A DNA stretch of 64,000 nucleotides from Bryobacterales bacterium (GTDB lineage: Bacteria > Acidobacteriota > Terriglobia > Bryobacterales > Bryobacteraceae), in the NCBI GenBank assembly GCA_003166865.1, contig PMUP01000064.1, positions 1 to 64,000 on the forward strand, in the 5' to 3' direction. Under the pieces are notes generated by a model. The model was not told the DNA's origin and ran no database searches. It saw only the letters and a program-made list of their open reading frames with translations. The position numbers and the translations under genes were made by a program. Below, one piece after another: positions 9,397-44,594 of the stretch (the stretch's first letter is position 1; the number at the start of each line of letters is the position of its first letter).

Positions 9397-11070
9397 TCAG
9401 GGTTTCCAGGCCGGTCCGCGGACCACTTTGCCCGGCAGCGCGTTGGTCATGCTCCCGTGTTCGATGACCGGCACACCGTTCACAAGCACGTACTGCATTC
9501 CTTCGGACAATTGGTTGGGCTTTTCGAAAGTAGCGACATCGGTGATGACGCCGGGATCAAACACCACAATGTCCGCCCACATGCCGGTCTTGATGACGCC
9601 GCGATCGGCGAGCCGCAGATGCGAGGCGGGCAGCGCGCTGAATTTCCGGATGGCATCGGGCAGCGTGAGTGCGCCGTCTTCACGAACGTACTTGCGCAGG
9701 ATGTGCGGGAATGTTCCGTAGGCGCGCGGGTGCGGATGCTCCTGGCCGAGGAAGCCGTCTGTCGCGGTGCCCTGAGAATCGTTGCACACGCTGACCCAGG
9801 GTTGCTGGAGCGCGAGCCGGACGTCGGGTTCGGACATGCCGAAGACGGCGACGTTGGTGGCCGCATTGTCTTCGATCAGGAAATCGAAGATGGTGTCGAA
9901 CGGGTCCTTGTTCCAGAGCTTTGCAATTTCCGCGATGGTCTTGCCTTGCAATGGCAATAGTTTCGGATTTTGGACGACGCTAATCAGAATGGCTTCAGGA
10001 CCCGTGATCTCGTCCCATTCGTTGTCCCAGGTGGTGCTGGGGGTCTCGATATCTTTGCGGATGCGGGCGCGGGTGGCGGGATCTTTGAGGCGTTCGATGA
10101 GTTTGGCGTCGCCGCCGTCGTGCGCCCAGGGCGGAATGAAGGCCGAAAAGCTGTTGAACCAGGCGGTATACGCGTAGGTATTGGCACCGATCTCGACGCC
10201 GGAACGGCGAGCCGCATCGATGCGCGCGACGATCTCGGGCATGCGCCCCCAGTTCTGACGGCCGGCCGCTTTGAGGTGCCAGATTTCGACTGGGATATGA
10301 GCTTCACGGCCGATTCGGATGGCCTCGTCGATGGCGGGAATGATCGCATCGCCCTCGCTGCGCATATGCGTGGCGTAGATACCGCCCAGCTTCGCCCCCT
10401 CCGCGGCGAGAGCGATCAGTTCCTCGGTGGTGGCATAGGGCGCGGGCGCGTATTGCAGGGAAGTGGACACTCCAACTGCGCCGTCGTGCATGGCATCGCG
10501 AACGAGGGCTCTCATTTGCTCTAGCTCCGCCACCGTTGGGGCGCGATCGCCATCGCCGATCACCGCCCTGCGCACCTGGGTCGCGCCGACGTAACTGGCG
10601 AGGTTAATGCCCATGCCCTGCTTTTCGAGGCGCGCGAAGAAGTCGCGGAAGGTGTTCCAGGAGGGGTCGATTTTGTAGTGCTCGTAGCCGGCGTGGTCGG
10701 CGGCGCGAATGGCGTCGGTGAGTGGTGCGGCCGATCCGCCTTCGCCGGTGATCTCGGTGGTGATGCCCTGATAGATTTTTGACGGGAGGTGCGGATTGAC
10801 CAGGATCGATTCTTCCGACTGTCCCAGCATGTCGATAAAACCCGGAGCGACTACCATGCCGGCGGCATCGATGGTCTGTTTGGCGGTGGCCGAATCGAGA
10901 TGGCCAATGGCCGCGATGTGGCCGTCGCGGATCGCGATATCGGCTGCGTACCAGGGCGAGCCGGTACCATCGATGATGTGCCCGTTACGGATAACGAGGT
11001 CGTAGTTCTGCCCGAAGAGGCCCTGGGCGAACAGGCTCAGCGGGAGGAGAAGCAGAAGCGTGAACTTCAT
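9397..11070 (-). CDS. Secreted N-acyl-D-amino-acid deacylase-like amidohydrolase
   Basis: 557 residues with signal peptide (LLLLLPLSLFAQG). The amidohydrolase start pattern YDLVIRNGHIIDGTGSPW is followed by VVAPGFIDMLGQSEES, where family members with bound metal normally have HxH; here that pair is absent (LGQ). Later family segments remain: ATHMRSEGD, EIWHLKAAG and the C-terminal DRGVIKTGMWADIVVFD. The proteins hydrolyse N-acyl-D-amino acids or related cyclic amides, but the lost HxH makes the substrate and metal use uncertain. It is transcribed divergently from the Fic gene, and its start lies 60 bp from the repeat array. Confidence 0.8.
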   Translation of the reverse strand: MKFTLLLLLPLSLFAQGLFGQNYDLVIRNGHIIDGTGSPWYAADIAIRDGHIAAIGHLDSATAKQTIDAAGMVVAPGFIDMLGQSEESILVNPHLPSKIYQGITTEITGEGGSAAPLTDAIRAADHAGYEHYKIDPSWNTFRDFFARLEKQGMGINLASYVGATQVRRAVIGDGDRAPTVAELEQMRALVRDAMHDGAVGVSTSLQYAPAPYATTEELIALAAEGAKLGGIYATHMRSEGDAIIPAIDEAIRIGREAHIPVEIWHLKAAGRQNWGRMPEIVARIDAARRSGVEIGANTYAYTAWFNSFSAFIPPWAHDGGDAKLIERLKDPATRARIRKDIETPSTTWDNEWDEITGPEAILISVVQNPKLLPLQGKTIAEIAKLWNKDPFDTIFDFLIEDNAATNVAVFGMSEPDVRLALQQPWVSVCNDSQGTATDGFLGQEHPHPRAYGTFPHILRKYVREDGALTLPDAIRKFSALPASHLRLADRGVIKTGMWADIVVFDPGVITDVATFEKPNQLSEGMQYVLVNGVPVIEHGSMTNALPGKVVRGPAWKP

Positions 11071-11129
11071 TCAGCTAATATGCCACTACTGTGAGCGTGG
11101 CGTCTTTCGACTGGGCTTTGGGTTTGAAT

Positions 11130-11249
11130 AGCACAATGTGCTTGTACCTGTACAGCATAATAAGCTTGTATTGGCACAGCACAATATGCTTGCAATGGTA
11201 CGACATGATATGCTTGTGTTTACACGGCAGAATATGCTTGTAGAGGCAC
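11130..11249. repeat. Five 24-bp tandem repeats with palindromic core upstream of the Fic gene
   Basis: Five units start at exactly 24-bp intervals: 11130, 11154, 11178, 11202 and 11226. The core of the first is a perfect 13-nt palindrome, AGCACA-A-TGTGCT. The others are variants: AGCATAATAAGCT, AGCACAATATGCT, GACATGATATGCT and GGCAGAATATGCT. Each core is followed by TTG and an 11-nt spacer that varies more than the core. The array ends 22 bp before the Fic ATG. Variation outside the core and conservation inside it suggest protein-binding sites rather than recent slippage. There are no spacer units, so this is not CRISPR. Confidence 0.85.
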
Positions 11250-11271
11250 GGGAACGCAAGGAGTCGCCATT

Positions 11272-12825
11272 ATGCCCAAACCGAACGAAAAACTCGCGGA
11301 ATCGCTGGCTGAGCTTCAGGATCTTCAGAGGAACGGGCGGCGCGTTTTCCGGTCGCGCGAGCTGAGCCGCACGCACCGGGAGCGGCTGCTTCGCAGCGGC
11401 TTCTTGCGGGAGGTCATAAAAGGCTGGCTGATGTCCTCGGGTCCACACGCGCGCGATGGCGACAGCACACCATGGTATGCGTCCTTCTGGGAATTCTGTG
11501 CGGGCTATTGCCAGGACCGATTCAAAAATGCATGGCACCTGTCGCCTGAGCAGTCGGTTCTCCTGCATGCGCAGAATACGGTGATTCCAACACAGGTGGT
11601 GGTCTACAGCCGGAAAGGCACGAATCACACCATGAAGCTGCTCTTCGGCACATCCCTTTATGACCTCAAACAACCGGAGATGCCGCCCGCAGTGGACGTG
11701 TCGGTCACCGAAGGGCTACGACTGTTCTCTCCCGCGGCGGCGCTAGTGAAGGTTCCGGAGAGCTTCTTCACACGAAAGCCCATCGAGACTCAGGTGGTGC
11801 TGGCAGGCATTCGCGAAGCATCGGATGTGCTGCGGCTTCTACTCAACGGCGGCCATTCGGCAAAAGCAGGGCAGATCGCCGGAGCATTCCGCCGCATCGG
11901 CCGACCGCAGATGGCCGACGAGATCGTCAGGGCGATGAAGTCCGCGGGATACGACGTGCGTGAAACCGATCCCTTCGCGCCGGAGCAGACCTTCGGCGTT
12001 CTGCCCGCGGTCACAGCGCCCATAGTTGGACGCATCCGTGCGATATGGGAATCCATGCGGGAAGCGATCGTCGAGACGTTTCCGAAGGCGCCGGGCCGTC
12101 CGCGAAACAGGAAGGAATATTTGCGCTTCGTGGGCGACATGTATAAGAGCGACGCCTACCATTCGCTGTCGATCGAGGGGTACAGCGTGACGCCCGCGCT
12201 GATCGAAAGAGTGCAGCGGGGAGACTGGGATCCGGATCATCACGACGACGACCGCGAGAGCCGCGATGCCCTCGCAGCGCGTGGCTATTGGCAGGCTTTC
12301 CAGAGCGTCAAGGAAACGGTAGGTGAAGTGATTGCCGGTGGCAATCCCGGCGTCCTGGCGCGCTCGGCTCACAGGGAGTGGCACCGCCAATTGTTCCAAC
12401 CCTGCGTGGCGGCCGGCTTGATTGAGGCGGGGGCGCTGGCGGGCTACCGCAATAGCGCGGTGTATCTGCGCACGTCGCGGTATGTGCCGCCGCGCTGGGA
12501 AACGGTTCGCGATGCTATGCCGGCACTCTTCGATCTGCTGGAGGATGAACGCGAGCCCAGCGTCCGCGCCGTACTGGGCCACTGGCTGTTCGGCTATATC
12601 CATCCCTACCCTGACGGCAATGGGCGGGTGGCGCGTTTCTTGATGAACGCGATGCTGGCCTCGGGTGGCTATCCGTGGACCGTCATCCGGGTTGAGGATC
12701 GCGACGGCTATCTAGCGGCGCTGGATCGCGCCAGCATTGACATGAAGATCGAACCGTTCGCCAAATTCATCGCCACACGCGTGCGGAGGTCGATGAAGCG
12801 GGCGGCTGCGAAAGCGCGCGCGTAA
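11272..12825 (+). CDS. Fic-domain AMP-transferase-type protein with N-terminal winged-helix/AbiEi-like region
   Basis: 517 residues, ATG preceded by AAGGAG at 11258-11263. The Fic core motif HPYPDGNGRVAR is at 444-455, matching HPFx[D/E]GNGRxxR completely, so catalytic activity is expected; Fic enzymes usually transfer AMP from ATP to target hydroxyls. An inhibitory-helix motif SLSIEG (298-303, pattern S/T-xxx-E-G/N) lies before the core, making this a class II, self-inhibited Fic. Residues about 1-240 are not Fic: a short winged-helix-like start (FRSRELSRTHRERLLRSGFL) and a long region resembling AbiEi-type antitoxins, by eye only. Such a region could bind the five operator repeats just upstream. 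No separate antitoxin gene is seen. Confidence 0.9.
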   Translation: MPKPNEKLAESLAELQDLQRNGRRVFRSRELSRTHRERLLRSGFLREVIKGWLMSSGPHARDGDSTPWYASFWEFCAGYCQDRFKNAWHLSPEQSVLLHAQNTVIPTQVVVYSRKGTNHTMKLLFGTSLYDLKQPEMPPAVDVSVTEGLRLFSPAAALVKVPESFFTRKPIETQVVLAGIREASDVLRLLLNGGHSAKAGQIAGAFRRIGRPQMADEIVRAMKSAGYDVRETDPFAPEQTFGVLPAVTAPIVGRIRAIWESMREAIVETFPKAPGRPRNRKEYLRFVGDMYKSDAYHSLSIEGYSVTPALIERVQRGDWDPDHHDDDRESRDALAARGYWQAFQSVKETVGEVIAGGNPGVLARSAHREWHRQLFQPCVAAGLIEAGALAGYRNSAVYLRTSRYVPPRWETVRDAMPALFDLLEDEREPSVRAVLGHWLFGYIHPYPDGNGRVARFLMNAMLASGGYPWTVIRVEDRDGYLAALDRASIDMKIEPFAKFIATRVRRSMKRAAAKARA

Positions 12826-43625: not shown

Positions 43626-44594
43626 ATGACCAATGTGCTTGACCGCTTGCCCGAAGGCGCCCGGGTGGCTGTGATTCGCTTGCGGTCGTTGGGCGATAGC
43701 GTGCTGACGACGCCCGCGCTCGTTTTGTTGAAACAATTCCGCCCCGATTTGAAACTCAGCGTAGTGGTGGAAGACAATTTCGCCGCGGTCTTCACCGGCA
43801 ATCCCGATGTCGATCAAATCCTCGCACCGAATGCCGCCAGCCTGGCCCGCTTGCGCCCGCATCTTGCGCTCAATTTGCACGGCGGCGCCACCAGCGTGCG
43901 CCTGATGCTGGCAGCGGCGTCGGGATTGCGCGCCGGATTCGGCCATTTTCGCTTCCAGCCGATGTACAACATCCGCATTCCGCGCGCGCAGGAGATTTTG
44001 GGCCCGGAGATTTTGAAAATGGACCGCAAGGTTCATACGGCCGAACATCTCGCGTCCGCCATGTTTTATCTGGGAGTGCCGCAGTCCGAGATCCCGCGCG
44101 CGCGATTGTTTGCCGCGCCCTTTTCCCGGAGCGGTCCCTACGCCGTGTTGCATCCCCTGGCCTCGTCGCCCGAGAAGACTTGGCCGCGGGAAAACTTCCT
44201 CGCTGTCGCGAAACACCTTCGAGACCTGGGGATCGAACCACTGTTTGTCGCGGGCGCAGACGAAGATCTGTCGGCCTTCGGTGAACATTGTTGCTTTCAA
44301 GGCGCGGCGCTGGAAGAAGTGAAGTCGCTGCTCGCGGGCGCTTCGCTTTTCGTTGGAAATGACAGCGGCCCGGCCCATATCGCCGCGGCGTTCGGCCGCC
44401 CTGTAATTGTGCTTTTCGGATCGTCGGACGTGGAAAACTGGAGCCCCTGGCGCACCGAAAACGCGGTCCTGACGAGTCCGAATGGGATCAACTCAATTGA
44501 GGTGTCGGAGGTCGCAGAGGCCATCGACCGCCTCGTCCCACAACCCACCCCCCACTTCCTGCAACCCACCCCCCACCTCCCACAACCCAGATGA
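43626..44594 (+). CDS. Glycosyltransferase family 9 (heptosyltransferase-like)
   Basis: 322 residues. The N-terminal motif RVAVIRLRSLGDSVLTTPAL and the later ASSPEKTWPRENF and NDSGPAHIAAAFGRPVIVLFGSSD are typical of ADP-heptose:LPS heptosyltransferases. The last 18 residues are PTPH-type repeats encoded by a C-rich tract, unlike the family. The stop overlaps the next ATG (ATGA). The link with the following MsbA-like gene supports a role in lipid A-core assembly. Confidence 0.9.
   Translation: MTNVLDRLPEGARVAVIRLRSLGDSVLTTPALVLLKQFRPDLKLSVVVEDNFAAVFTGNPDVDQILAPNAASLARLRPHLALNLHGGATSVRLMLAAASGLRAGFGHFRFQPMYNIRIPRAQEILGPEILKMDRKVHTAEHLASAMFYLGVPQSEIPRARLFAAPFSRSGPYAVLHPLASSPEKTWPRENFLAVAKHLRDLGIEPLFVAGADEDLSAFGEHCCFQGAALEEVKSLLAGASLFVGNDSGPAHIAAAFGRPVIVLFGSSDVENWSPWRTENAVLTSPNGINSIEVSEVAEAIDRLVPQPTPHFLQPTPHLPQPR
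44537..44588 (+). repeat. C-rich repeat encoding the PTPH tail of the glycosyltransferase
   Basis: Two near-copies of a CAACCCACCCCCCAC unit (44541-44555 and 44562-44576) flanked by CCCACAACCC at both ends. On the minus strand this gives at least six runs of three or more G separated by short loops, a strong G-quadruplex pattern. The tract sits inside the reading frame just before the overlapping MsbA-like start at 44591. Confidence 0.75.

What the first reader, a model, noticed from the sequence alone, without database searches (positions are those of the whole stretch)
11130..11249. Five exact-period 24-bp operator-like repeats in front of a lone Fic gene
The spacing is exactly 24 bp across five units while only the 13-nt palindromic core (AGCAxA-A-TATGCT-like) stays similar; the first core is a perfect palindrome. 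This pattern suits cooperative binding of a dimeric repressor. The array sits between the divergent amidohydrolase start (60 bp away) and the Fic start (22 bp away), so it could control both. No regulator gene is adjacent; the N-terminal part of the Fic protein itself is the best candidate binder. A regulated, self-contained Fic module of this form is not one I recognise.
Basis: partly seen in the sequence, partly recalled or inferred. Interest (0 to 1): 0.72.

Follow-up and report, generated by a model that had tools for sequence, protein, structure and literature searches.

The report
Toxin-like Fic gene with self-read operators
A lone bacterial Fic enzyme gene sits behind a row of 24-base repeats that its own protein very probably binds to switch itself off, and because the same arrangement occurs in many unrelated bacteria, the protein residues that appear to read two of the bases can be picked out from sequence alone.

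Summary
The array is real: five 24-bp units at 11130-11249, 22 bp before a lone 517-aa Fic gene. It is a family trait: 83 of 86 homologue upstream regions (several phyla; three contigs counted twice) outscore the best of 120 shuffles, against 2 of 18 Fic genes lacking this N-terminal half. An exact two-unit pattern occurs nowhere else in the 6.67-Mb genome.

The N-terminal half folds like the type IV antitoxin AbiEi. Unit base 11 follows residue 119 (Asn-A, His-G, Lys-C: 86 of 87 rows without Arg117; 15 divergent loci left out) and base 13 follows residue 118; on a tree each ranks first among variable positions for its base, though 118 does not survive multiple testing. So the Fic protein itself very probably binds its array. 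In the commonest motif class -35 and -10 boxes sit in successive units, so the period equals promoter geometry (6+18).

Best reading: a single-protein, autorepressed Fic module with head-to-tail AbiEi-type operators. The window's own promoter is weak by consensus. No binding, repression or toxicity was measured.

The parts
11130..11153 (+). operator unit 1 (-5 from the gene), AGCACAATGTGCTTGTACCTGTAC
11154..11177 (+). operator unit 2 (-4)
11178..11201 (+). operator unit 3 (-3); columns 8-13 (11185-11190, TATGCT) stand where relatives of the ACTTG class carry the -35 box TTGACT; weak here
11202..11225 (+). operator unit 4 (-2); carries the putative extended -10 TGA-TATGCT (11206-11214)
   Evidence: position-specific conservation in relatives; the simple promoter scan found nothing here
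11226..11249 (+). operator unit 5 (-1), predicted to lie just downstream of the start of transcription
   Evidence: inference
11258..11263 (+). Shine-Dalgarno-like AAGGAG
   Evidence: by eye
11272..12825 (+). Fic gene, 517 aa, AbiEi-like N-terminal half fused to a class II Fic domain
11272..11451 (+). aa 1-60: winged helix-turn-helix (fold prediction)
11467..11946 (+). aa 66-225: pseudo-nucleotidyltransferase (AbiEi C-terminal-domain-like) part (fold prediction)
11620..11628 (+). codons 117-119 (Thr-Asn-His), proposed base-reading residues
12163..12180 (+). aa 298-303 SLSIEG, inhibitory motif (S/T)xxxE(G/N), N-terminal to the Fic motif (class II)
   Evidence: class definition in PMC9755527 (passage)
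12601..12636 (+). aa 444-455 Fic motif HPYPDGNGRVAR, complete

Best explanation
The locus is a self-contained, autorepressed Fic module made of one protein and its own operator array. The N-terminal half (aa 1-242) is an AbiEi-type DNA-binding antitoxin fold; the C-terminal half is an intact, auto-inhibited (class II) Fic AMP-transferase. One AbiEi half binds each 24-bp unit, head to tail, with the winged helix and a loop of the pseudo-nucleotidyltransferase part both on the DNA. Residue 119 (helped by 117) reads base 11 and residue 118 reads base 13. The promoter is inside the array: in the commonest class -35 and -10 sit at the same columns of successive units, so bound protein covers them and shuts transcription off. 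When protein falls below the level that fills the array, the promoter opens and Fic is made again. Shown by sequence: the array, its family-wide conservation, covariation with residues 118/119, the promoter-phased order of units in relatives; by fold prediction: the AbiEi likeness. Inferred: binding, one protein per unit, repression, the window's own promoter, toxicity of the free enzyme, and whether the AbiEi half also restrains the Fic domain.
For: (1) Arrays in front of relatives: 83 of 86 upstream regions score above the best of 120 shuffles; units aligned. (2) Control of 18 Fic genes without this N-terminal half: mean lag-24 identity 0.28 against 0.43; array score above the shuffle maximum in 2 of 18, and 79 of 86 family rows score above the best control. 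(3) Base 11 against residue 119: normalised MI 0.75, next best position 0.21 (71 non-redundant rows). In 100 combined rows, without Arg117: N-A 54 of 55, H-G 21 of 21, K-C 11 of 11. On a tree built without residues 114-124, 119 ranks first among variable positions for base 11 (p 1.2e-6; next is 280, 7.8e-5) and 118 first for base 13 (p 1.1e-4). On well-supported branches the independent pairs go the same way: H/G 3 of 3, K/C 1 of 1, N/T 2.6 of 3 on average over 200 pairings. (4) New loci not used to find the rule: among 26 with best lag 24, 14 of 15 with N, H or K at 119 fit (two of the 14, L142 and L145, have a weak register); the miss has Arg117. (5) Promoter order: unit -3 TTGACT in 25 of 41, unit -2 TATACT in 21 of 41 ACTTG-class arrays; order statistic 271 over 69 arrays, maximum 209 in 5000 shuffled orders. 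In the GCTTG class 13 of 18 unit -2 have an extended -10 TGnTA, in ACTTG 0 of 41. (6) Fold: Rv2827c (1zel) Z 10.2, 5.2 A over 220 residues; AbiEi (6y8q) Z 8.8, 5.1 A over 178. (7) Exact two-unit pattern only at this locus in the own genome; in 396 genomes of the phylum 6 have it, 5 of them at the fic gene.
Against: No binding or expression data exist. The simple sigma-70 scan finds no promoter in the window's own array: its -35 position is TATGCT. In the window's GCTTG class the best promoter-like pair has its -35 at column 8 in only 3 of 18 arrays. The pair tests on supported branches have too few pairs to reach p 0.05. Exceptions to the code: Arg117 proteins mostly go with G at base 11 (7 of 9 rows; L008 and L095 have A), and L089 has N with C. 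For base 13, 5 rows have Asn118 with G and one Gly118 with T. Divergent relatives have a 23-bp period (L137, L138, L144, L154, L156, L161; 40-57% identical to the nearest row of the first set) or an uncertain register (L141, L142, L145, L157-L160; 45-55%) and were left out of the count. Two of 18 control upstreams pass the shuffle maximum (L015 13.2, L028 12.3 against 11.0); for L015 the stretch taken is coding, since its frame opens 124 codons earlier. The p value for 118 does not survive correction for the positions tested. Sequence profiles do not call the N-terminal half AbiEi (one of 53 members at E 0.12); that rests on fold alone.
Confidence: 0.8

Rival explanations
1. Palindromic operators for a separate, dimeric repressor encoded elsewhere; the Fic protein is only the regulated product.
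For: The first core is a perfect palindrome and many repressors bind palindromes (general knowledge).
Against: The unit is asymmetric in the family; its bases follow residues of the Fic protein itself; arrays are found with the fic gene across phyla and on plasmids; neither neighbour gene of the window is shared apart from one distant amidohydrolase hit among 156 loci.
Confidence: 0.07
2. The repeats are an RNA antitoxin, as tandem repeats are in type III toxin-antitoxin loci (recalled), and are transcribed to restrain Fic.
For: Tandem repeats directly in front of a toxin-like gene; the window strand folds slightly better than shuffles, z -1.83, 12 of 200 shuffles as good.
Against: No Rfam match in 10800-11600; promoter boxes lie inside the array in relatives of the ACTTG class, so most units would not be transcribed; bases of the core change in step with a protein residue; no terminator-like site in 11060-11300. 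A covariation test of an RNA structure was not run.
Confidence: 0.05
3. The array activates rather than represses, or serves mainly as a sink that holds the protein on DNA and so switches its enzyme activity (as DNA does for CbFic2, PMC10628234, passages).
For: Arrays have 2-7 units, mostly 4-5, more than are needed to cover one promoter; CbFic2 changes from AMPylation to deAMPylation on DNA.
Against: Units lie on the -35, -10 and start region in ACTTG-class relatives, the classical place for repression. Compatible with repression as an added role.
Confidence: 0.15

Closest known systems
AbiEi of Streptococcus agalactiae and Rv2827c of Mycobacterium tuberculosis (type IV antitoxins; PMC7319586, abstract and passages)
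   Same: winged helix plus pseudo-nucleotidyltransferase domain (fold match); binding site of 23 bp per monomer against a 24-bp unit here (23 in six divergent relatives); sites overlap the promoter; autorepression is shown there, inferred here; there both domains carry residues needed for DNA binding
   Different: there the toxin is a separate DUF1814 gene and the sites are inverted repeats (within a pair 3 or 13 bp apart); here a Fic domain is fused on and the units are head-to-tail direct repeats phased with the promoter
CccR of Yersinia pseudotuberculosis (PMC9755527, abstract and passages)
   Same: class II Fic protein with its own DNA-binding domain, which represses its own promoter (shown for CccR, inferred here)
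   Different: Fic domain first, C-terminal helix-turn-helix, dimer on one inverted repeat of 10 bp spaced by 26 bp; no array
SoFic / CbFic2 type Fic proteins with a C-terminal winged helix (PDB hits; PMC2686095 and PMC10628234, passages)
   Same: Fic with a DNA-binding domain in the same chain
   Different: DNA-binding domain at the other end of the protein; no operator array in the passages seen

Membership tests
[quoted passage not shown]
   HPYPDGNGRVAR, aa 444-455 (Tyr for Phe in third place); Pfam Fic E 2.4e-14; 53 of 53 aligned members match Pfam Fic
Fic, class II | inhibitory motif (S/T)xxxE(G/N) N-terminal to the Fic motif | tested here: met
   SLSIEG aa 298-303
Fic, class II | AMP transfer to a target | not testable with these tools
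   no assay
AbiEi-type IV antitoxin | N-terminal winged helix and pseudo-nucleotidyltransferase domain | tested here: met
   fold prediction only: 1zel Z 10.2, 6y8q Z 8.8; Foldseek first hit 6y8q_A E 3.1e-4
AbiEi-type IV antitoxin | recognised by a sequence profile of the family | tested here: not met
   no Pfam AbiEi match in window protein or 53 members; NCBIfam TAA_AbiEi only 1 of 53 members, E 0.12
AbiEi-type IV antitoxin | adjacent AbiEii (DUF1814) nucleotidyltransferase toxin gene | tested here: not met
   five neighbouring ORFs scanned: two amidohydrolases, an esterase-like ORF, a redoxin and an S41 peptidase; the toxin place is taken by the fused Fic domain (inference)
AbiEi-type IV antitoxin | 23-bp sites as inverted repeats | tested here: not met
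   head-to-tail units of 24 bp; best lag 23 in six divergent relatives
AbiEi-type IV antitoxin | neutralises a toxin | not testable with these tools
   no assay
CccR-like autoregulated Fic | DNA-binding domain C-terminal to Fic, inverted-repeat operator | tested here: not met
   DNA-binding fold is N-terminal; direct repeats

The most novel reading that the evidence does not exclude
A toxin-antitoxin system in one polypeptide: an AbiEi antitoxin fused in cis to a Fic toxin, lining up head to tail on a promoter-phased array, in which the pseudo-nucleotidyltransferase domain, not only the winged helix, reads bases by a short residue-to-base code (117-119); array occupancy both represses the gene and holds the enzyme inactive.
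Probability: 0.3. Interest if true: 0.8.

Novelty: new variant of a known kind. Interest (0 to 1): 0.62.

Why it matters
It turns 'lone Fic genes' of this type, found from Acidobacteriota to Rhizobiales, Bacteroidota and conjugative plasmids, into a regulated module with a testable operator code. It gives a clean case of protein-DNA co-evolution, with three residue-base pairings at one position, that points to base reading by the second domain of the AbiEi fold; the passages I saw on AbiEi describe that domain as part of a charged surface needed for binding (PMC7319586). It also suggests why the period is what it is: the operator spacing equals the -35 to -10 spacing.

Tried and rejected
Control of the divergent amidohydrolase: not supported as a conserved feature. 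tblastn of the amidohydrolase and of the downstream esterase-like ORF against 156 fetched loci gave nothing with the cut-off; repeated with a lax cut-off (best eight rows shown) it gave one distant amidohydrolase hit (L103, 25% over 200 aa, E 2.3e-9) and otherwise nothing below E 0.5; as a positive control 144 of the 156 loci were hit by Fic queries. Flanks are at most 4 kb. The array may still touch that promoter.

Coding or transposon repeats: the array lies between the two genes; short ORFs over it were not taken as genes.

RNA families: no match in 10800-11600. Phage records: no homologue at 1e-20. Eight IMG/VR contigs hold relatives. A looser own-genome pattern did not recover even the known array and says nothing.

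The first lag test used four loci in the wrong orientation (L002, L004, L005, L007); they were re-oriented, and the family counts here come. The 86 upstream regions are the window, 78 of the 80 loci (L042 and L090 lack upstream DNA; itself kept the best 80 of 93) and seven. L039 and L087 (proteins broken by a stop) were left out of the protein alignment (84 rows). The register of the first 86 arrays was set with all columns; that of the new loci with columns 11 and 13 masked. The weak arrays L091, L093 and L109 were kept in the counts.

Of 37 new non-redundant loci, 26 have their best lag at 24, 6 at 23 and 5 elsewhere (L124, L130, L131, L143, L149). Fifteen new loci (L137-L142, L144, L145, L154, L156-L161) were left out of the combined count. 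Of these L145 fits the code; L154, read by eye, does not (Lys119 with G, Arg117); L157, L158 and L160 have Gln119 with T, L159 Arg with A, L141 Gly with A, and L142 has no usable register. The 14 of 15 includes L142 and L145. Among the five odd-lag loci L130 and L143 fit, L131 and L149 (both Arg117) do not, and L124 (Ala119) has no prediction.

Other DNA columns tested for covariation (14, 15, 16, 8, 10 and two combinations) gave no single stand-out residue; columns 14-15 seem to follow clade. Residues 1-70 were not clearly enriched among the top 20 for most columns. So no winged-helix residue has been tied to a base.

Control upstreams start at the first ATG of the frame, which is too late in some (L015).

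Papers: PMC9755527, PMC7319586, PMC2686095, PMC2701414, PMC8562856, PMC12894286 and PMC10628234 were seen as abstract or search passages, none read whole. No paper on an AbiEi-Fic fusion or on such arrays showed up in the listings (some of these list only the first 20); the library holds open papers only.

Full report
What is there. The window carries five head-to-tail units of exactly 24 bp at 11130-11249, followed by a Shine-Dalgarno-like AAGGAG and, 22 bp after the array, the ATG of a 517-aa Fic gene (11272-12825). Inside the array, identity at lag 24 is 0.69; the best lag in any of 5000 dinucleotide shuffles reached 0.48. An exact two-unit pattern taken from the array matches the 6.67-Mb genome only here (four overlapping hits).

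It is a family trait. One scan of genome contigs gave 80 relatives (best 80 of 93; 47-87% identical, most over nearly the full length) from Acidobacteria, Alpha- and Gammaproteobacteria, Gemmatimonadetes, Bacteroidota, Desulfobacterota and others, going by record titles, many of them of metagenome bins. Upstream DNA was available for 86 rows in all (three contigs twice). An array finder scored 83 of the 86 above the best of 120 shuffles; L091, L093 and L109 fell below. Units in register are shown. Of the 86 arrays, 81 have 3-5 units. As a control, 18 Fic genes that match only in the Fic core have a mean lag-24 identity of 0.28 (maximum 0.37) against 0.43 (minimum 0.33) in the family. With the array finder, 2 of these 18 pass the shuffle maximum of 11.0 (13.2 and 12.3), one of them on a coding stretch; 79 of 86 family rows score above 13.2. 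In 396 genomes of the phylum the exact two-unit pattern occurs in six; five are at the fic homologue, and the sixth (G270, not looked into) is in a genome without a homologue at E 1e-60. Most of the 21 genomes with a homologue do not match this strict pattern, which covers only the GCTTG and ACTTG classes. The gene itself is patchy: 21 of 396 genomes at E up to 1e-60, and on 77 of 72,556 plasmid records, 40 of them predicted conjugative.

The unit. Column information is highest at 3-4, 7, 11-15 and 24, low at 5-6, 10 and 18-23. The motif at columns 11-15 differs by clade but is largely uniform within an array: consensus ACTTG 42, GCTTG 18 (the window), ACGTG 6, ACGCG 5, then ACTAA, CCTAA and others, of 86.

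The protein reads the array. Testing every variable residue against the unit bases, base 11 picks out residue 119 far above all others (normalised MI 0.75, next 0.21). In the 84 aligned rows Asn goes with A in 59 of 61 (one G, one C), His with G in 18 of 18 and Lys with C in 5 of 5. Base 13 picks out residue 118: of 70 rows with T, 69 have Asn; of 14 with G, 11 have Gly, Ser or Arg. The pairs are of the kind known from other DNA-binding proteins: Asn with A, His with G, Lys with the G opposite C (general knowledge). Relatedness alone does not explain it. On a tree built without residues 114-124 there are 6 independent pairs of rows for His119, 3 for Lys119 and 5 for Asn118, of which 3, 1 and 3 lie on well-supported branches; the direction was reported for these last, and they go the same way in 3 of 3, 1 of 1 and on average 2.6 of 3, too few for a significant sign test. 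On a 100-row tree 119 ranks first among variable positions for base 11 (8 shared branches, p 1.2e-6, followed by 280 at 7.8e-5 and 116 at 2.2e-4), and 118 first for base 13 (4 shared branches, p 1.1e-4, which does not survive correction).

Prediction on new loci. Loci fetched afterwards were scored with columns 11 and 13 masked when setting the register. Of 26 with a best lag of 24, 15 have N, H or K at 119 and 14 fit; the miss, L136, has Arg117. Two of the 14 (L142, L145) have a weak register. Arg117 is a second rule: 7 of 9 Arg117 rows have G at base 11, with L008 and L095 as exceptions. Without Arg117, 86 of 87 rows with N, H or K fit (this set joins the first loci and the new ones; 15 divergent loci left out, listed under Tried and rejected).

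The fold. A model of aa 1-242 (mean pLDDT 93.8) matches Rv2827c (1zel, Z 10.2, 5.2 A over 220 residues, 14% identical) and AbiEi (6y8q, Z 8.8, 5.1 A over 178, 12%) best, the next row having Z 7.4 (Foldseek first hit 6y8q_A). Residues 117-119 lie at the end of a loop and the start of a strand (119-122) in the pseudo-nucleotidyltransferase part, not in the winged helix. AbiEi binds one 23-bp repeat per monomer, and positively charged residues in both domains are needed for DNA binding (PMC7319586, passages). The 24-bp unit, and the 23-bp period of six divergent relatives, fit that footprint. The Fic half is complete (HPYPDGNGRVAR, SLSIEG) and its best matches among solved structures are FICD enzymes.

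The promoter is inside the array. In the ACTTG class the third-last unit has TTGACT in 25 of 41 and the second-last TATACT in 21 of 41, at the same columns 8-13, while the last has AAAACT most often (11 of 41). A promoter scan that does not use the register puts the best -35 at column 8 in 34 of 42 arrays of that class; over all classes, 34 of the 49 best pairs scoring at least 9 have an 18-bp spacer. Shuffling unit order in 69 arrays never reached the observed score (271; maximum 209 of 5000). So in this class the period 24 is 6 + 18, the distance between the two boxes. In the GCTTG class, where G at column 11 spoils TTGACT, the same scan finds column 8 in only 3 of 18, but 13 of 18 second-last units carry an extended -10 (TGnTA), against 0 of 41 in ACTTG. 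The window shows this form (TGATATGCT, 11206-11214); a plain sigma-70 scan finds no promoter there, so its promoter remains inferred. In seven closely related ACGCG/ACGTG rhizobial loci the best pair starts at column 18, six of them with an 18-bp spacer. In the remaining classes no common place was seen.

Mechanism. Most likely each protein molecule binds one unit by its AbiEi half; filled units cover -35, -10 and the start, and the gene is off. Dilution or loss of protein reopens it. That free or unrestrained Fic is harmful, and that the AbiEi half acts as an antitoxin in cis, are guesses from the two known families. [quoted passage not shown] PMC9755527). The fusion, the head-to-tail promoter-phased array and the residue-base code did not appear in the listings.

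Noticed in passing
L039 680-; L087 1584-; L107 3001-; L010 1501-1722: Broken copies of the fic gene (early stop or fragment); L039, L087 and L107 keep arrays of 3, 4 and 5 units upstream.
   Followed up: no
L137, L138, L144, L154, L156, L161: Divergent relatives (40-57% identical to the nearest row of the first set; viral contigs and plasmids) have a best lag of 23 instead of 24 bp, which would fit a 17-bp promoter spacer.
   Followed up: partly
L098 and L108, about 100 bp upstream of fic: By eye, a short ORF end resembling a C2H2 zinc finger lies directly upstream of the array in both a Rickettsiales MAG and Fulvivirga, whose fic proteins are close on the tree: perhaps a cassette moved between them.
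   Followed up: no
L158 and L160 (S. meliloti plasmid, Ri plasmid pRi1724): The fic gene sits between traH and, after a small helix-turn-helix gene, traM of conjugative plasmids.
   Followed up: no
L143 4001-5509 (B. thetaiotaomicron p5482, BT_RS24275): A relative on a 33-kb conjugative plasmid of gut Bacteroides, with only a weak array of ACGAG-type units; it breaks the residue-118 rule.
   Followed up: partly
window 44536-44589: Tandem repeat of a 21-bp C/A-rich unit, 2.6 copies.
   Followed up: no
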